Source of the DNA: Protula sp. h YS-2021
Lineage: Eukaryota > Annelida > Polychaeta > Sabellida > Serpulidae
Assembly: GCA_949752745.1 (NCBI GenBank)
Contig: OX457031.1
Span: 38,599,502 to 38,663,501 of the forward strand
Length of the DNA: 64,000 nt
Reading direction: 5' to 3'
Made by a program: the position numbers and the translations under genes. Below the pieces are notes generated by a model. It did no database searches. It worked only from the letters and a program-made list of their open reading frames with translations, and was not told the DNA's origin. Below, piece after piece: positions 23,271 to 51,870 of the stretch (position 1 is the first letter of the stretch; each line of letters starts with the position of its first letter).

Positions 23271-24891
23271 TTGAAATTCAACGGAAATTCGCATACGTCT
23301 CCAACTTGCTAGGATAATATCCTTTGTAGCTGGAACTATTTCTGACATTTGCTCAGCTTGTACATGCATTATGGACGTAACAAAACGACATACCCTTATT
23401 TTAGCCGGAAAATATGTAACGCTTGTTTTTACAAATAGCAGTTTGGTATGCTGTGGTGTGAGAAATAAAACTCCCGAGCAGTGAATATCTTTTTTTTTTT
23501 TTTTTTGCTTACTTCAGGTAATGGTGTTGGTGCGTTTGCAGGCTCATTCCCAAACTTTGGTTAATGTGTCACTGTTGTGTTCAGAACTATATCCGTTTGG
23601 AGATTGGGGGGAGGAGTTGGGACACACCTCGCCCAACCCCCCCCCCCCCAAAAAAAAAAAAAAAAAAATCACAGTATATGCTTGCCTATACCCAAAAACA
23701 TCGGGTAAAGGATTTAAGATTGCGTTGGGAGCCGTACCCAGGCTTGAGAAAGAGGTGGGGGGGGGGGGCTGTCAACGCAACCCCCTCCCACTTACGTTTT
23801 AGTCAAAGGCTTGTCAGGATTTGGGCACGAGGGAACGGGTTTCTACAGGTCCCCGATGTGACTGTTGATTTTACCTGCATCAGAGTGCGTAGGGGGATGT
23901 GGTGGCGAAAAAGAACAGTTGCAGGAAGAAATTGGTGATGTACTGACCACCTTCTGGACCCGGACCCGCAAAAGAAGACATACAATAAAAGCTATCTGTA
24001 TTGATCCGGTGTGACAGTGAACACGGTCCCCCAGTGATTACGCCCCGCGGACCATTGATCACTAGGTTTTAGGTCCCCCTCTAGTGATTACGCCCCCCCC
24101 CCCCCTTTAATATCATGGATGTGCGTTATTTATGGTGCCTGAACTCTGTCAAATTATAAATTTTAAATAAAGTAGGAGTAAATAAGAGTTACTTTCGTAA
24201 ATTTTATTGCAATTTCATATCATATTTATTGACATACAACAAATATAACCAGTTTTAGCAAACACTGTACAGATGCTTACATTCTATATATTATATTGCA
24301 TAGACTGGAGTATAATGATCTGCTGGGTTACTGATATAAATGTTCCGAGTAGATTTTCTTAACTTGCCAAGTGCTTTAAGTTTCGATGAAGCAGCTTTTA
24401 TGTGAGCCACTTGTATGTTTGATTTCCTGCTGTATCTCGACCACGTGGTGTATAAACACAAATGTCCGTATAGAGCATTGACGCAGTAGCTAAAACTTCG
24501 TTTTCCGTCGCCCAGACGCCAGGTTTGGTTTGACCTTTTTAAAAAAAACTGGAACTGCAACCTATACCAGAGAAATGTTCGTCATTTTCATATATATATT
24601 CTGTGAGCACTTTTCTGAGATCAGGGATTTACCAGTTACAAATTTTGGCCATCGTGTTGCATTGATCTCTTCAGATGAAAGCATATACATTTGCTGTAAT
24701 TAATAATCTATTCATTCTAAATTTGCTGTTAGATTTGGGAGTGAATAGTGTCACTTTTAATTTAATGTTAGTTCACTAATTGTATGTAACAGTGTTTTCG
24801 ACAAAGATTTTTTTTTGAAAAATCGCCGGACAGTTGCTCTTGATTTTCAGAGTAGTGCTGCTTCAGCTGTGGAATGTAGGGCATCAGTATC
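23271..24891. other. Sequence upstream of the sulfotransferase gene
   Basis: It contains C/A and G homopolymers (23636-23668, 23757-23768, 24093-24105) that generate long false frames. The 89-residue minus frame at 24291-24560 could not be tied to a family or splice sites. The promoter of the plus-strand gene at 24892 must lie here or further upstream, but no TATA element is convincing. Confidence 0.35.
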
Positions 24892-26705
24892 ATGACCATC
24901 TCAGATCTAATTCACATCAAGCACAAATTGACGTTAACGTCTGAGCAAGCGCCACGATGCTGGGGCACGAGACTCACTCGCTTCAAGTGTATTGTTTTAA
25001 GTCTGACGGCTGTTCTAGTGCTTAGTCCGGTCATTTTTCGAGCTTCTCAGGATGGCACAAGTAAAGTCCCACAAGCAGTTACTATGTTAGAACCTCTGGC
25101 TAACATGACCGGCGATCTGTCGTTCAATAAGATCCACTACAAGCACTTACAGCGCAGGCTGCCGCAGTGCGTTGTGATAGGAGTGCGCAAGGGTGGCACC
25201 AGAGCTCTCATAGCATTTCTCAAGATGCATCCGGATATCGTAGCCACGGGCGAAGAGGTGCACTTCTTTGACAGGGATGAAAACTACGCCAAGGGTCTGG
25301 AATGGTACAGGAGCAGGATGCCGTATTCCCTTCCAGGTACTTTTTTCTTAGCGTGCTATTATGTCTTGTTTTATTTTATGTGAATATAGTATATATCATA
25401 TATACTGTGTAGTGTAGTGGTGTATATTATACAGTACACGGTATTGAAACGAGCAAAGGTGTCTGTTCCTCGACTGTCTAGCAGTTGTTAAACATCCAAC
25501 AGCTTTGCAACAAAACTTAAAGGGGGCTATTCTCAAGCCTCTACAGGGATGTACAACAGAGCTACTATATGTACAGCAAAAGCGAAACACCCCAGTGGTT
25601 GTTAACGGATGCGCAGGTTACAATATGTGACGTATAGTCAAACAATGGCGTAGTTTAAAAGTGGAAAAGCCTCTGTGTTACGTTCAAATGGGCAGGAATG
25701 TAACGATTGTAAAATACTCCACTGTCAATACATTGTGTTAGTTTGTTCTTCTTAGAGAAATGAGGAGATGAAAGGGCATTTTTGATCTGGGGATCAAAAT
25801 TAAAAGATATAATTATTATTATTTCGTTCAGTTCATTTTATCTATTCTTGCAGACAGCTCTAACTGCAGTACATTAATGGAGTACTAAAGGCACACAAAA
25901 GGGATGAGAAATTGAAATATAATTAAACAGTTGAGAGGTGTCTTTAACTTACATTTCAGCTTCAAGATTGTCAGTATTTTAAAATCGCAGGCAAATTGGT
26001 TGAGTCATCAAAGTGTCAGTTCCTGCAGATGCGTTGACTGTCAATTTCTATATATGTGTGACTGATTTTACAGGTCAAATCACAATGGAAAAAACACCGG
26101 CGTACTTCCATGACGCGCGGTCAGCCGAGAGGTTACACCGCATGAACAGTTCCTTGCGTCTGCTCCTCATTGTACGCGACCCGGTCGTGCGGGCCGTCTC
26201 AGACTGGTACCAACTGGACCTCAAGCGACAGAAAAACGGCAGGGATTCTATACCATTCGAGAAGCTCGCTCTACGTCGCGACGGCTCTATCAATACGTCA
26301 TATGACGTCTTGCAGCGCAGTGTGTATGCGTCAGCTTATAAGCGCTGGACGAAAATATTTTCACCGCGACAAATTCACGTTGTTCACGGCGAGGCATTCA
26401 TGAAGGACCCATCTCAAGGACTTGAGAAGATAGAGCAATTCCTAAAGATACCTAGGTACCTTACCCCAGATTTGTTCTTCCTGAATGAAACCAAAGGATT
26501 TTATTGTGCGTTGGACAGATCGAAAGGTGTTGAGAAATGTTTGAATGATGATAAAGGGCGGATTCATCCGTACGTAGATCCCCGAGTTTTGCAAACACTT
26601 AGGCACTATTATAAAAAATTCAATGAAAGATTTTTTAGGGCCACAGAGCAGAGGTTTGATTGGGAGTATGAACCGCGAAATGCGCGCGTGCGTGATCGTC
26701 ATTAA
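24892..26705 (+). CDS. Heparan sulfate glucosamine 3-O-sulfotransferase (two exons, ~358 aa)
   Basis: Exons are 24892-25336 and 26074-26705, joined in phase 1 (donor CAG/gtactt, acceptor tttacag). The product transfers sulfate from PAPS to the 3-OH of glucosamine in heparan sulfate, in the Golgi lumen. It has type II topology: a short basic N-terminus, a membrane anchor around residues 29-48 ([17 protein letters not shown]), a stem, then the sulfotransferase domain. The 5'-phosphosulfate loop is GVRKGGTRA (97-105, Lys100). The catalytic-base Glu lies in EEVHFFD (Glu122 by alignment with HS3ST1 Glu90). MEKTPAYF follows the junction, and the 3'-phosphate site is [16 protein letters not shown]. 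The conserved Cys pair is in [18 protein letters not shown], followed by [10 protein letters not shown]. Length and motifs match an intact family member; the HS3ST subtype is not resolved. A transposon begins 10 bases after the stop. Confidence 0.93.
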
Positions 26706-34540: not shown

Positions 34541-36160
34541 TATAACCTGACGTTGCACAAATACACTTTATATACTTCCCAGCTGCAGAGTTTTATTGGT
34601 CTACGGTGAATAGCAACAAAGATACAGCCTGGAAAAACTTGTCTGAAAAACAGCAAAGTCTAAATTGTGAAAAATCGCAAAAATTACATTTTTTAAAGAA
34701 ATCGCAAAATAACCTAACGTTGCACAACTACACTTTATATATGTTACAGGCAAACTGTCAAATCAGGCAGATTATAATCTGCCTGAAAATTTCAGGCAGA
34801 TTGTAAAATTCCTGGCTCGACCAGGCACATTGTAATCTGCCTAAAATTTTTAGGCAGATTGTAATCTGCCTGATTTTGGAGCCTGAAAATTTGACAATTT
34901 GCCTGAAATGAAATGAACGTTTGTAATCATGATCCCCCCATGCGATTTGGTTCTTGTCTATTCAAATATGTGATCGCAAGAATAAAAGGCAATTCATGTG
35001 GTCAATTGCAATTAAATGGGAGTGAATGGGTCCGCTCGTGCGTTTCATGCGATTTGATTTCTTGTACTAACTAAAAATAAATAAATATGTAACACTGCAA
35101 ATGTATTTATCAGGTATCAACTTTTCACGCCCCTATTTATACTGTGCACAAAAAATCCCAGCAAATACCGGAGGAGTAAGAATTAGGAAGCTACATTGGC
35201 ATGTTGATCTCAAAATATAATACATCATAGAGGTATGGGGGGGGGGGGGGCTGGATTGAGATTTATACCATTGCATTTATTTTTTTGATCAATCACGACA
35301 TAAAGCAATGCAATCAGCAAAAAAGTCGCGCATTTACTTAATCGACAAATTGCAATTAGAAATTGCATTTAAACATATCAATAGCATTATGCAGGTTAAA
35401 TAACTCAAGGCATAAAAGAAAGCAAGTGGTAAACAAATCACATGAAACGAACGAGCAAACCGACCACTCACATGTATTTAATTGCAGTAAGACACATCAA
35501 TCGCTTTTTATCCCTACGATCACATATTATAATAAATGACAACCAAGTCCCATAAAACGCGTGAATAGATACTAAAAAACTAGTGTTATACATGATCATA
35601 ACCAAATTAATCCTCTATTTAATTGCAATTGATCACATCAATCGCCTTTTATTCTTACGACCACATATTGGAATAGGTAACACCCAAATCGCATGAAACA
35701 GCGGGTTATGAATGAGATGGATCATGATTACAAACGTTCCTTTCATTTCACGCAAATTGTCAAATTTTCAGGCTCCAAAATCAGGCAGATTACAATCTGC
35801 CTAAAAATTTTAGGCAGATTACAATGTGCCTGGTTGAACAAGGAATTTTACAATCTGCCTGAAATTTTCAGGCAGATTATAATCTGCCTGATTTGACAGT
35901 TTGCCTGTAACATATACATTCTACCTGTAGGGTTTTATTTGTCAACGATGAATAGTAACAAAGATACAGACTGGACAAACTGGTTCTGAAAAACGACAAA
36001 GTCTAAATTTTCAAAAAATCGCCAAAATTACATTTGTTAAAGAAATCGAAAACTAACCTGACATTTTACAACTGCACGTTATATACTTTCTTGCTGTAGG
36101 GATTTATTAATCTCTGAGAAATAGCAACAAAGATGCAGCCTGGACAAAGAGGATTACACA
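34541..36160. repeat. Tandem repeat of about 165 bp, interrupted by element B
   Basis: Units carry 'taacctgacgttgcacaa', 'actttatata', 'gttttattggtct', 'gaatagcaacaaagatacag' and 'aaagtctaaatt'. About one unit precedes element B and one and a half follow it (from 35913 and from about 36091). Removing 34742-35912 plus one TATA restores a continuous array, which confirms the insertion. Confidence 0.7.
34742..35912. mobile_element. TGTTACAG-ended DNA transposon, copy B (TATA TSD)
   Basis: A 1171-bp element begins TGTTACAGGCAAACTGTCAA and ends with the inverted TTGACAGTTTGCCTGTAACA, flanked by TATA (34738-34741 and 35913-35916). Its ends are filled with palindromes of 'caggcagatta(t)aatctgcctg' type. 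The inverted similarity reaches about 200 bases inward, to 'catgattacaaacgtt'. There is no coding remnant. It inserted into a pre-existing tandem array. Confidence 0.8.
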
Positions 36161-46270: not shown

Positions 46271-46841
46271 TTACGATCTACTTTAACCATTTCTATCTCC
46301 GCTCCTCGAAGGACTATTGGTTCATCAGCATTGCATTTTGAGAGCTCCATAGCCCCTTTCCCACGATGCACCTCTCTTAATGGAGATTTTATTGCCGGGG
46401 CCTCGAATAAGCACATGAGGGTCCCCAGTGTATCTAACTGGTAGGGGTGGCTATCACTACCGCAACAGCAGGAAAGCAAGTCACACTTGGCAAAAAAAGA
46501 ACTTGTACACGGTGCTCAAATTATCGCCCATTATTTATTCGTGGCAGACTACCTTTTGCGTTTACGTGAATTTCTTATAGCAACTTTGATTAGCTTTATT
46601 GTTTTTTGTCACAGGATGTGAGGTTTATTCTTTTTGTTACTTTATGTTAAAACTTACCTTGCAATTTCTTTTTGTTGACTTTTTACAGGTGTCGACAAAC
46701 ATTTGCACGATGAAAAAAGTTCGCACGTAGACCTGAAATGCATCAACATATTGCACGCATAGTTAAACCGCCACTGTTTTATCCCTAGTAACGTGCATCC
46801 CAAATACAGAAGTGTTTGGATAAAGCGCGCGCCTGTTCGAA

Positions 46842-46893
46842 TGACGTCATTATGACGTCATAATGACGTCATGATGACGTCATAAAGACGTCA
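46842..46893. promoter_or_regulatory. Array of CRE palindromes (TGACGTCA) at exact 11-bp spacing
   Basis: Perfect TGACGTCA starts at 46842, 46853, 46864 and 46875; a fifth, AGACGTCA, starts at 46886. TGACGTCA is the full CRE/ATF binding palindrome, and 11-bp spacing places the sites on one face of the helix. The array is about 160 bp upstream of the TATA box of element E. It could be an enhancer, or an end-binding array for the element; function is inferred. Confidence 0.6.
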
Positions 46894-47055
46894 TAACGTA
46901 AGACTCCCCTCAGCGGTATCACCCTAACCCTAGGCGCAGACAACATGTTCAACAACATGTTGAACATATTGAACTTGTTGAACATGTTGTTCAACATGTT
47001 GTTCAACATGTTGTTCAACAAGATGAACATGTTCAACATGTTGTTCAACAAGTTG

Positions 47056-47063
47056 TATATAAG
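47056..47063 (+). promoter_or_regulatory. TATA box of element E
   Basis: TATATAAG directly follows the left palindromic array and lies about 210 bases upstream of the first long ORF. A canonical TATA sequence in this position suggests RNA polymerase II transcription starting near 47090. Confidence 0.5.
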
Positions 47064-47271
47064 GCTATGCTTAAAGGCTTTTTCATCATTTGAAAAGTGT
47101 ATGTTGAAACGAAAGGATGTATAAATCAACATTTGTTTGAAATCTTACAATTGGCCACAAAGTCTTAAAAGGCACTTAAAGGATGCTCACACTTCAGAAG
47201 AAGAAGAATAGAAGATAGATATGGAAAACCCTGTAAAACTACATATCACTGAAACTTGAGATGAGTCTTCT

Positions 47272-47580
47272 ATGGAAAGTCAAAGCGTCAATATGACTGA
47301 AAAGAATGCACATTCTTGTACAGAATGTGGTGCGTTATACAACAGTCAAGAAGCTTTGTTCAAACATATGGAACATTGTGGTGAGGGTGATGATGACAGC
47401 AGCTCTGAAAGTGAGTCAGAAACAGACTCTGTTTGGTATGATATGGTTCAAGAAGTCTACGATGAATATGATACCAAATTTCAAAAAAAGGTTTCAGAAT
47501 ATGAAGAACAAGGGCTTGAAGATGCGCGTGAAATAGCAAGTGATGACTTTCGACCCATTTATAAGCGTCAACTTAAATAA
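47272..47580 (+). CDS. Single-C2H2 zinc finger / acidic protein of element E (N-terminal part)
   Basis: This 102-codon frame begins MESQSVNMTEKNAHSCTEC. Residues 16-36 form a C2H2-like finger (C-x2-C-x12-H-x3-C: CTECGALYNSQ ... HMEHC). It is followed by an acidic/serine stretch (GDDDSSSESESETDS) and a helical segment VWYDMVQEVYDEYDTKF. It ends at TAA 47578-47580, but the same frame is open for 25 more codons after the stop, and a matching acidic tail follows in another frame (47675-47839), so the gene looks broken or needs an unseen intron. It may bind the element's own palindromes; that is inference. I know no characterised family for it. Confidence 0.55.
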   Translation: MESQSVNMTEKNAHSCTECGALYNSQEALFKHMEHCGEGDDDSSSESESETDSVWYDMVQEVYDEYDTKFQKKVSEYEEQGLEDAREIASDDFRPIYKRQLK

Positions 47581-47674
47581 CTGTTTATGAGACTATTCAA
47601 ATATACCCAACGTCTAGAACAAAAAAAAACATTATCAAACCATTATAGAAGACTTTAATTATTTTGTTGATTAA

Positions 47675-47839
47675 AAACATTACGAGTATTCAAAGGCACT
47701 AAAGGCGGCTATAAGAAGAAACGATGCATTCTTTGAAAAGCTTCTGGATGATGAGGAGGAAGTTGAAAACAGCGACGAAGAAAGTGATATGGATGAGGAC
47801 AGTGAGATGGAAAAGAGTGAAGCAGATGAAGAAAAATAG
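47675..47839 (+). pseudogene. Acidic C-terminal part of the element E protein, out of frame
   Basis: Fifty-four open codons read KALKAAIRRNDAFFEKLLDD followed by a strongly acidic tail (EEEVENSDEESDMDEDSEME) and TAG. The frame is +1 relative to 47272-47580, so a frameshift, decay or splicing separates the two parts. AATAAA follows 21 bases after the stop. Confidence 0.5.
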
Positions 47840-47860
47840 ACTTATTTGACTGAACTTTAT

Positions 47861-47866
47861 AATAAA
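47861..47866 (+). promoter_or_regulatory. Poly(A) signal of element E
   Basis: AATAAA lies 21 bases after the TAG of the acidic tail and before the right palindromic array, so the whole transcript would be contained within the element. Confidence 0.55.
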
Positions 47867-48224
47867 GACTTTGTAAATCAACAAATGTTGTAATATTGTT
47901 ATAGATTTAAGCTGTGTGTATTTAAGTGTATTAATAAAACTATTTAACATATGTCTTGTTTTTTTTTCTGAACCGGCTGCTATTGTTGCATCAATTCTTT
48001 GAACTACAACATGTTGAACAACAACTTGTTGAAAAACATGTTAAACAACATGTTGAACATGTTGAACAACAGCTTGTTGGACAATTGTTGTACAATTGTT
48101 AAACAACTTGTAAAAAAACTTGAACAATACTATGACGTAATATGTTCAACAAAAAAAAATAATTCGAACACATGTTTGAACGAGCTTGCCATTCGAACAC
48201 CGTCTTGTGAATGGGAGGTGTGCT

Positions 48225-49030
48225 CCAACCAAAGTGCTTACAGCCGCCTATGCAAATAGTCCCTTGATTACTGTAAACTAGACATCAAACTGAATCCAAT
48301 GGTGAAATTTTCGTTCAAATCGGTCAACCATAACGAAAATTATTCCATATTTAAGTGAAAATTTTAAGGTGAATCAATAATGCATACAGCCACCGGTGTA
48401 AATAACCCCAAGACTACTTAATGTTAAAACTAGACATCAAATTGACTGAAATGGTGAAATTTTTAATCAAATCGGTCAACTACAGCGAAAGTTATCTCAC
48501 TTTTAAATTAAAATTTTAAGGTGAATCAATAATGCATACAGCCATATAAGCAAATAGCCCTAATTACTTCATGTTAAAACTAGATATAAAACTGAATCAA
48601 ACAGTGAAATTTTTATACAAATCGGTCAACTATAACGAAAGTTATCTAATTTTTTTCACTTTTTACAAAGTTAAAATGGCGGCATGTCACATTATGCATA
48701 CAGCCACCGGTGTAAATAGCCTGTTATTACTTTACACCAAAACTTTACATAAAAACTGAATCAAACAGTAAAAATTTCATACAAATCGACCAAGTATTGC
48801 GAAAGTTATCTCATTTTTTCACTTTTTACAAAGTTAAAATGGCGGCATGTCACTTTATGCATACAGCCACCGGTGTAAATAGCCTGTGATTTTTTTTATA
48901 ACAAAACTTTACATAAAACTGAATCAAACAGTGAAATTTTCATTCAAATCGGCCAACTATTGCGAAAGTTATTTCACTTTTTCACTTTTTTAAAAAGTTT
49001 CAATTATGCTTACAACCACCCATGCAACTT
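48225..49030 (+). repeat. Five-copy tandem repeat, unit about 155 bp
   Basis: Units begin 'tgcatacagccaccggtgtaaatag' or variants near 48236, 48380, 48534, 48697, 48859 and 49007, and share 'aaaactagacatcaaactga', 'caaatcggtcaactat' and 'gcgaaagttat'. Copies differ by substitutions and indels, so the array is moderately old. It abuts element E. Confidence 0.85.
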
Positions 49031-50474: not shown

Positions 50475-51870
50475 TTGTCTCGAAGCGATTTTGGGCCCAT
50501 TATCGCTTCTTTGGGCCTAAACAACGTTACATAAGAGGTACTTCGGTGATCTTGACCTTCTGGGACACGGTCAAGGTCAAAAACTGAAAGTTGTCTATTA
50601 TCTCAAAAACGGTTAGAGATAGAGCAATTTTTAGCTCATTTTCGATCCCTTGGGCCTATTCAACGTTGCTCGGTGACCTTGACCTTTTGTGTCACGGTCA
50701 AGTCCAAAAACTGGAAGTTGACCATTATCTCGAAAACGGTTAGAGAGAGAGAGAGAGAGAGAGAGAGCGATTTTGAGCTCACTTTCGACCCTTTGGGCCT
50801 AAACAACGTTACATAAGAGGTACCTCGGTGAACTTAACCTTCTGGGTCACGGTCAAGGCCAAAAACCGGAAGTTGACTATTATCTCAAAAACGGTTAGAG
50901 ATAGAGCGATTTTGAGCTCATTTTCGACTCTTTGGGCCTAAACAACGTTACATAAGAGGTACCTCGGTGAACTTAACCTTCTGGGTCACGGTCAAGGCCA
51001 AAAACCGGAAGTTGACTATTATCTCGAAAACGGTTAGAGATAGAGCGATTTTGAGCTCATTTTCGACTCTTTGGGCCTAAACAACGTTACATAAGAGGTA
51101 CCTCGGTGAACTTAACCTTCTGGGTCACGGTCAAGGCCAAAAACCGGAAGTTGACTATTATCTCGAAAACGGTTAGAGATAGAGCGATTTTGAGCTCATT
51201 TTCGACTCTTTGGGCCTAAACAACATTACATAAGAGGTAACTCGGTGACCTTGATCTGGGTCACGGTCCAGATCAAGAACCGAAAGTTGTTTATTATCTC
51301 GAAAACGGTTAGAGATAGAGCGATTTTGAGCTCATTTTCGACTCTTTGGGCCTAAACAACGTTACATAAGAGGTACCTCGGTGAACTTAACCTTCTGGGT
51401 CACGGTCAAGTCCAAAAACCGGAAGTTGACTATTATCTCGAAAACGGTTAGAGATAGAGCGATTTTGAGCTCATTTTCGACTCTTTGGGCCTAAACAACG
51501 TTACATAAGAGGTAACTCAGTGACCTTGATCTGGGTCATGGTCCAGATCAAGAACCGAAAGTTGTCTATTATCTCGAAAGCGGTTAGAGATAGAGTGATT
51601 TTGAGCTCATTTTCGACCTTTTGGCCTAAAAGACTATATGCAAGAGGTGCCTCGGTGACTTGACCACCTCAGTCATGGTGACTGTGAAAAAGCGGAAGTT
51701 GACCACTGTCTTGAAAACGTTTAGAGATAGATCTTTTTTGAGATTTTTCGACCCTTTCAGCCTAAAAAGCGTCATGTAAGAGGTACCTCGGTGATCTTGA
51801 CCATTTCCGGCATGGTCAAAGTCAAAAACTTGAATTTCCAAAAACATTTAGAGGTTTTGCAATTTTAAGC
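50475..51870 (+). repeat. Satellite array, 139-bp unit, about ten copies
   Basis: The start of 'tttgggcctaaacaacgtta' recurs at 50792, 50931, 51070 and 51209: exact 139-bp steps. Each unit contains 'cataagaggtacctcggtga', 'tctgggtcacggtcaaggcc', 'accggaagttgactattatc' and 'gaaaacggttagagatagag'. Central copies are almost identical, while both ends are diverged, the usual pattern for an array homogenised from the middle. The repeated GGTCAAGG words are close to nuclear-receptor half-sites (TCAAGGTCA), but most copies have GGCC there. Confidence 0.9.

What the first reader, a model, noticed from the sequence alone, without database searches (positions are those of the whole stretch)
46834..48199. 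Compact transposase-less mobile unit with its own promoter, zinc-finger/acidic ORF and poly(A) signal between palindromic arrays
Everything needed for a transcript (CRE array, TATA, ORF, AATAAA) is packed between inverted arrays of AACATGTT/GTTCAACA palindromes, yet the only product is a small single-C2H2 protein with an acidic tail, now split by a stop and a frame change. Non-autonomous elements usually carry no gene, and autonomous ones encode an enzyme; this has a non-enzymatic gene. One idea is that the protein binds the palindromic ends or the arrays regulate its own transcript. It is the strongest candidate here for an undescribed element type.
Basis: partly seen in the sequence, partly recalled or inferred. 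Interest (0 to 1): 0.75.

Follow-up and report, generated by a model that had tools for sequence, protein, structure and literature searches.

The report
Palindromic gene-carrying satellites of Polinton transposons
The spot is a decayed half of a large mirror-image mobile element that carries its own small gene, makes no mobility enzyme of its own, and wears the same end sequences as virus-like Polinton transposons in the same animal genome, which suggests that it lives off them.

Summary
46834-48199 is the inner part of one decayed arm (46815 to ~49027) of a larger multi-copy element in this 863-Mb genome. Three complete copies read whole are near-perfect palindromes of 5.9, 7.1 and 8.4 kb, with a divergent gene copy in each arm. 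Intact copies encode 237/245 aa: two C2H2 fingers, helical domain, acidic tail. Ends are 5'-AGTAG..., and 15 of 15 units checked have exact 6-bp target duplications. Twenty units of 15.6-18.3 kb end in the same motif; pieces of five of them encode a Polinton-type integrase with chromodomain, a packaging ATPase and an adenovirus-like protease (weak match). One palindrome shares 368 terminal bp at 98.9% with such a unit. Two palindromes whose genes differ at 1 of 714 nt have terminal repeats only 80% alike, each closest to a different Polinton. A relative of the gene is fused to a Polinton-type ATPase in a database protein.

Best reading: a gene-bearing palindromic satellite of resident Polintons, copied and integrated in trans. 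Palindromes, termini, duplications and homology are shown. Trans-mobilisation, snap-back copying and protein function are inferred. The paper searches listed no described equivalent.

The parts
46815..49027 (+). Remnant of one arm of a palindromic satellite element (centre-proximal end at left); the centre, the mirror arm and the outer terminal repeats are missing
   Evidence: limits of homology to 29 other copies; no further element sequence in the window
46834..46843 (+). TGTTCGAATG, left member of an inner inverted pair that frames the gene module; internal in complete copies
46841..46896 (.). CRE-like array, 11-bp period, 4 exact TGACGTCA
46942..47057 (.). Left AACATGTT / GTTCAACA palindrome array, upstream of the gene
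47056..47064 (+). TATATAAGG, TATA-like box; also in the five intact copies printed
47117..47839 (+). Broken copy of the C2H2 / helical / acidic gene (intact elsewhere as 237 or 245 aa); open pieces 47260-47580 and 47675-47839
47861..47938 (+). Two AATAAA poly(A)-type signals (47861-47866, 47933-47938)
48006..48126 (.). Right AACATGTT / GTTCAACA array, downstream of the gene
48190..48199 (+). CATTCGAACA, right member of the inner inverted pair
48274..49004 (+). 152-163-bp tandem repeats that belong to the arm; matched in 28-29 of 29 other copies

Best explanation
The finding is a decayed half of a non-autonomous, palindromic Polinton (Maverick) satellite. A complete satellite has this order: Polinton-type terminal repeat, tandem-repeat arm, array-flanked gene, CRE array, short centre, then the mirror image. 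In L031 the centre resembles the stretch just upstream of the Polinton polymerase-like gene. The satellites read whole encode no polymerase or integrase. They most likely use the products of ~17-kb Polintons in the same genome, which recognise the shared ends: protein-primed copying, then integrase insertion with a 6-bp target duplication. Because the two arms are complementary, a displaced strand can fold back on itself, and copying of such a hairpin would make both arms identical at each round. The terminal repeats are exchanged by recombination with whichever Polinton subtype is present. The carried protein (two C2H2 fingers, helical domain, acidic tail) belongs to a family with a Polinton-linked member and probably binds element DNA, the AACATGTT arrays being the first candidate, to favour satellite transcription or copying. 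Shown: multi-copy palindromes, termini, target duplications, terminal-repeat sharing, decoupling of gene and terminal repeat, intact gene copies, homology to a Polinton-linked protein. Inferred: trans-mobilisation, snap-back copying, exchange of ends with helpers, protein function.
For: Multi-copy: 293 matches (40 of 4612 candidates scored); 150 gene hits, all E <1e-140, 149 of 150 rows without a stop inside (150 of 6360 candidates scored). Geometry: 126 of 150 gene hits lie in divergent pairs within 3 kb, 0 convergent, 0 direct. Palindromes: L031 7055 bp (arm identity 96.4%), L032 5853 bp between termini (94.1%), L035 8352 bp (98.4%). Termini: pattern found 41 + 38 times, 0 in the reversed control; 13 short units (2.7-8.4 kb) and 20 long (15.6-18.3 kb); gene hits in 8 of 13 short and 0 of 20 long. 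Exact 6-bp target duplications in 15 of 15 units, 11 short and 4 long (one lies in a CT repeat). Helper pieces: integrase rve 7.8e-11 with chromodomain 1.7e-7, ATPase Pox_A32 4.6e-7 / Adeno_IVa2 7.5e-7. Terminal repeats: L031 vs long unit C4:27.3, 98.9% over 368 bp; of 12 short units compared with 12 long ones, 6 have a long unit at 96.8-99.6% over 252-420 bp. C2_24 and C2_35: gene 1/714 different, first 350 nt of the ends 80.5% identical with 42 gap columns. Centre: 106 of 133 columns (80%) identical to the region upstream of the polymerase-like ORF. P0007: residues 1-99 are 53% identical to the resident ATPase; residues 197-374 match the gene profile (98.0% probability, E 1.8e-13). Arms: 17 of 23 palindromes have no difference between gene arms, at most 2 in the rest; between elements median 7 over 253 pairs. 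Maverick ends (AGT)2//(ACT)2 and 6-bp duplications: PMC8097293, passages.
Against: No mobilisation was observed. No profile identified the polymerase-like ORF as PolB (only a weak endonuclease VII match, and DNA polymerase III tau at 0.0045) or the 470-aa capsid-sized ORF; those two names rest on recalled motifs, size and place. Five of 13 short units hold none of the 150 scored gene hits and may be plain Polinton deletion derivatives; two of the six close terminal-repeat matches (S_C7_27, S_C3_69) are of that kind. Six of 12 short units have no close helper among the 12 long units sampled: best 90.2% (S_C2_35), 88.6% (S_C5_78, S_C5_7), 83.3% (S_C7_35), 76.7% (S_C4_88), 73.3% (S_C5_3). The fast tree of terminal repeats disagrees with the pairwise identities and was not used. 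Selection on the gene: dN/dS ~0.24 comes mostly from copies picked by protein score; a DNA-chosen sample gave no significant synonymous excess of shared variants (7 of 24 vs 54 of 269, p = 0.30). In one search, 14 of 23 palindromes have an arm of another element within 0-1 differences, so arm identity is uninformative for them and may reflect recent expansion.
Confidence: 0.8

Rival explanations
1. A foldback-type DNA transposon (like Drosophila FB or Galileo, or sea-urchin TU) whose long inverted ends are made of tandem repeats, moved by a P- or hAT-type transposase, unrelated to Polintons.
For: Long inverted arms with tandem repeats.
Against: 6-bp target duplications in 15 of 15 units rather than the 7-8 bp recalled for P/hAT; ends shared at 98.9% over 368 bp with a ~17-kb unit of the integrase-encoding class.
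Confidence: 0.05
2. Selfish deletion/duplication derivatives of Polintons (snap-back defective genomes) in which the C2H2 gene is just a passenger with no function.
For: Terminal repeats and centre resemble Polinton sequence; snap-back palindromes are known as defective genomes of linear viruses (recalled). The unbiased selection test was not significant.
Against: The gene has no significant match in 20,127 bases of pieces of resident long units, while the control L034 matched at 2.8e-71, and no scored gene hit lies in 20 long units. 44 of 46 arms examined are intact, though most were picked by protein score. Relatives in other database contigs are 34-58% identical.
Confidence: 0.15
3. Assembly artefact: fold-back chimeric reads made single arms look like palindromes.
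For: Long palindromes are difficult for sequencing in general (established knowledge); no raw reads were seen.
Against: Matching 6-bp duplications on the outer sides of 15 of 15 units; an unpaired centre of 14-149 nt, the 25-nt one seen in both orientations; 63 divergent pairs with spacings of 548-937 bp; arms that differ by a 24-nt length change in L032 and L035.
Confidence: 0.03
4. Arms are kept alike by gene conversion inside the chromosome (as in Y-chromosome palindromes) rather than renewed by hairpin copying at each transposition.
For: Explains low arm divergence without a replication model.
Against: Units with perfect target duplications, so probably young, already have gene arms with 0-1 differences (C2:24.86, C1:9.4, C2:35.4, C7:35.1), and L032 and L035 keep an unconverted 24-nt difference. 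Not decisive.
Confidence: 0.3

Closest known systems
Polinton / Maverick (polintovirus, adintovirus lineage)
   Same: AGT-type ends, terminal inverted repeats, exact 6-bp target duplications; up to 98.9% identity over 368 terminal bp with a resident ~17-kb unit of the class that encodes integrase with chromodomain and packaging ATPase; a relative of the gene is fused to a Polinton-type ATPase in P0007
   Different: gene-bearing units are 4.6-8.4 kb instead of ~17 kb; the three complete ones read whole are palindromic and show no polymerase, integrase or capsid frame; they carry two divergent copies of a C2H2-acidic gene
Foldback elements (FB, TU, Galileo; recalled)
   Same: whole-length fold-back structure with tandem repeats in the arms
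   Different: 6-bp target duplication and Polinton ends; a protein gene in each arm
MITEs / non-autonomous DNA transposons
   Same: would depend on enzymes made by another element with matching ends
   Different: several kb long and carry an intact gene
Virophages and other satellite viruses of DNA viruses
   Same: logic of a small element that exploits a larger virus-like one
   Different: no capsid gene seen; packaging unknown

Membership tests
Polinton/Maverick | 6-bp target site duplication | tested here: met
   15 of 15 units, 11 short and 4 long
Polinton/Maverick | AGT-type termini and terminal inverted repeats of hundreds of bp | tested here: met
   criterion from PMC8097293 passages
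Polinton/Maverick | Encodes DDE integrase with chromodomain and packaging ATPase | tested here: not met
   met by pieces of the 17-kb units; not met by the three palindromes read whole. The palindromes are therefore not filed as Polintons but as their satellites
[quoted passage not shown]
   long open frame in L037, L080 and L038 with motifs recalled from PolB; no PolB profile hit; the PF03175 genome search did not complete
Polinton/Maverick (17-kb units) | Double jelly-roll major capsid protein | tested here: inconclusive
   470-aa ORF in L083 of suitable size and place; no Pfam or PDB sequence hit
Foldback elements (P/hAT-driven) | 7-8-bp target duplication (recalled) | tested here: not met
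   6 bp in 15 of 15
MITE | Short and without coding capacity | tested here: not met
   8 short units with gene hits are 4.6-8.4 kb; intact gene
Satellite virus / virophage | Packaged into particles with help of another virus | not testable with these tools
   no particle or extrachromosomal data

The most novel reading that the evidence does not exclude
A new class of hyperparasite: gene-carrying palindromic satellites that amplify in an animal germ line by hijacking Polintons. They swap terminal repeats to match each helper subtype, encode a Polinton-lineage DNA-binding protein that favours their own copying, and perhaps travel in Polinton capsids, so a virophage-like relation inside an animal genome.
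Probability: 0.35. Interest if true: 0.88.

Novelty: new variant of a known kind. Interest (0 to 1): 0.74.

Why it matters
The listings of six paper searches for Polinton derivatives, palindromes, foldbacks or hyperparasites (the longest result lists were cut to the top 15-20) show no title or abstract start that describes a palindromic or gene-carrying Polinton derivative. If the helper relation holds, Polintons in animals support satellites of their own, as giant viruses support virophages. Matched but swapped terminal repeats would be a readable record of the contest between helper and satellite. Identical arms and near-identical copies suggest recent activity. Maverick particles have not been observed (abstract start of PMC8097293), so an abundant satellite with linear palindromic DNA would offer a new handle on how these elements copy themselves.

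Tried and rejected
A protein search with the open piece of the broken ORF found nothing; the intact gene found 3 proteins and its profile 7 (the last of these, P0008, E 3.3e-5, was left out of the alignment). Viral contig scans with the gene, its alignment and the polymerase-like piece found no relative. Rfam (gathering threshold) and tRNA scans of the window were empty. Single-sequence model poor (mean pLDDT 46.6); alignment model better (72.0), but no fold match at E <=0.001 in the viral or PDB library. The 205-aa ORF next to the ATPase in a long unit is not a relative of the gene (probability 1.2%). The 39-kb pair was dropped as a mis-pairing of ends. Host naming was not attempted.

Full report
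WHAT IS THERE. The window lies at G000:C8:38599502-38663501 of an unnamed 863-Mb genome in 218 contigs. It holds sulfotransferase exons (Sulfotransfer_1 6.1e-15 and 5.4e-7); I take the host to be an animal (inference). The array motifs exceed shuffled expectation by far; TATA and AATAAA were not tested against chance.

THE UNIT IS LARGER. A DNA search of the own genome gave 293 matches, with 40 of 4612 first-look candidates scored. In the 29 other fetched loci homology reaches left to about 46815 in 20, and right through the 152-163-bp tandem repeats in 28-29. Many loci held a second, inverted copy. Longer stretches showed why: L031, L032 and L035 are near-perfect palindromes (arm identity 96.4, 94.1 and 98.4%) whose gene points outward from the centre in each arm. 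The window copy is one decayed arm, without centre, mirror arm or outer ends, and nothing of them lies elsewhere in the window. Its best match (L002, 92%) lies in a 4348-bp unit (L034) with an exact 6-bp duplication, in which most of the mirror gene is missing.

ENDS AND TARGET DUPLICATIONS. The palindromes end in AGTAGGGTGATAATG or close variants, among them AGTAGTATG. A 29-base pattern with up to 2 mismatches occurs 41 times forward and 38 reverse, and never in the reversed control. Pairing gives 13 short units of 2.7-8.4 kb and 20 long units of 15.6-18.3 kb; 13 of 79 ends stayed unpaired and one 39-kb pair was dropped. Both junctions were read for 15 units, 11 short and 4 long: all 15 have identical 6-mers on both sides. 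One of the 15 (L031) lies in a CT repeat, where a match is weak evidence. Vertebrate Mavericks have (AGT)2//(ACT)2 ends and 6-bp duplications (PMC8097293, passages seen).

THE LONG UNITS ARE POLINTONS. Pieces from five long units encode an integrase with chromodomain (rve 7.8e-11, Chromo 1.7e-7), a packaging ATPase (Pox_A32 4.6e-7, Adeno_IVa2 7.5e-7), a NADAR protein (9.6e-19) and an adenovirus-type protease (Peptidase_C5 5.2e-4, 20.2 bits against a cut-off of 21.3). The integrase, NADAR and protease frames were each read in one copy. A long polymerase-like frame (L037, L080, L038) and a 470-aa capsid-sized ORF (L083) have no telling profile hit; I call them PolB and capsid from recalled motifs, size and place only.

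SATELLITE AND HELPER. The outer 368 bp of palindrome L031 are 98.9% identical to the end of long unit C4:27.3. The left end of that unit and the right end of another (C6:18.85) also agree over just this stretch (99.5% over 369 columns), so sharing stops where the Polinton repeat stops. Of 12 short units compared with 12 long ones, six have a match at 96.8-99.6% over 252-420 bp (C2_24, C1_9, C1_108, C5_82, and C7_27 and C3_69, in which no scored gene hit lies); the other six reach 90.2, 88.6, 88.6, 83.3, 76.7 and 73.3%. C1_108 is an unpaired end 2.9 kb from a divergent gene pair. Gene and terminal repeat do not travel together: C2_24 and C2_35 differ at 1 of 714 gene positions while the first 350 nt of their ends are 80.5% identical; C1_9 and C2_35 differ at 2 of 738 and are 78.0% identical (gaps not counted). 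The simplest cause is exchange of ends with different Polinton subtypes. The centre of L031 is 80% identical (106 of 133 columns) to the stretch just upstream of the polymerase-like frame. The gene itself has no significant match in 20,127 bases of long-unit pieces, while L034 as control matched at 2.8e-71.

THE GENE. Intact copies encode 237 or 245 aa: two C2H2 fingers (zf-C2H2_6 1.2e-8, zf-C2H2 4.1e-6, two stretches each), a helical domain (residues 102-211, pLDDT mostly above 90 in the alignment model) and an acidic tail. Of 150 scored gene hits (6360 first-look candidates), 149 list no stop inside and 126 lie in divergent pairs. Relatives occur on other database contigs (source ENA): P0002, 236 aa, is 48% identical. 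P0007 bears on origin: its first 99 residues are 53% identical to the resident Polinton ATPase and residues 197-374 match the gene's profile (98.0% probability, E 1.8e-13; 1.3e-9). So the gene's family is linked to Polintons. Constraint on the gene is likely but not shown: dN/dS of 0.24 came mostly from copies chosen by protein score, and the DNA-chosen sample was not significant.

ARMS EVOLVE TOGETHER. In 23 palindromes (20 chosen from the 63 divergent pairs, plus L031, L032, L035) the two gene arms have no difference in 17 and at most two in the rest; between elements the median is 7. For 14 of the 23 another element's arm is also within 0-1 differences, so the contrast says little. The informative ones are L035 (0 substitutions inside, at least 18 differences to others), L077 (1 vs 10) and L078 (0 vs 5). 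The unpaired centre is 25 nt in 14 of 23, 14 nt in 4 and 19-149 nt in 5. L032 and L035 have arms that differ by one 24-nt length change. This fits renewal of both arms through a folded single strand during copying; chromosomal gene conversion is a live rival.

HOW IT MOST LIKELY WORKS. Helper Polintons supply polymerase and integrase (presence of an integrase gene is shown; action on the satellite is inferred). Shared terminal repeats make the satellite a substrate. Complementary arms allow snap-back copying. The C2H2-acidic protein probably binds element DNA; the dense AACATGTT arrays that flank the gene are the first site to test.

NOVELTY. Searches covered the open paper library; exact phrases for non-autonomous Polintons or Mavericks gave 0 papers, and no listed title or abstract start described a palindromic or gene-bearing Polinton derivative. 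Only listings were seen, plus passages of PMC8097293 and PMC6431247. Repbase entries and most subscription papers were not searched. Known parts: Polintons, foldback structure, non-autonomous elements. New: their combination with a Polinton-linked gene in both arms and helper-like, swapped ends.

Noticed in passing
24880-26705: Exons of a sulfotransferase gene (Sulfotransfer_1 5.4e-7 and 6.1e-15).
   Followed up: partly
34763-34873 and 35783-35891: Two arrays of a 29-bp palindromic unit in inverted orientation about 1 kb apart, perhaps ends of another small mobile element.
   Followed up: no
50484-51802: Tandem array of a ~139-bp unit, about 9.5 copies, just right of the finding.
   Followed up: no
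L050, L051 (G000:C5:82020171-82026340): A short unit inserted in GTTGAAC-type repeat sequence like the element's own arrays, target duplication TTGAAC; possible preference for such arrays.
   Followed up: no
L081:813-1265 (-): The long unit on C3 carries a NADAR-domain protein (9.6e-19), an accessory gene near one end.
   Followed up: no
L034:1840-6187: A 4348-bp unit with the gene in one arm only and most of the mirror gene missing, ends AGTAGTATAG, duplication ATTGTG: a form between the full palindrome and the window's single arm.
   Followed up: partly
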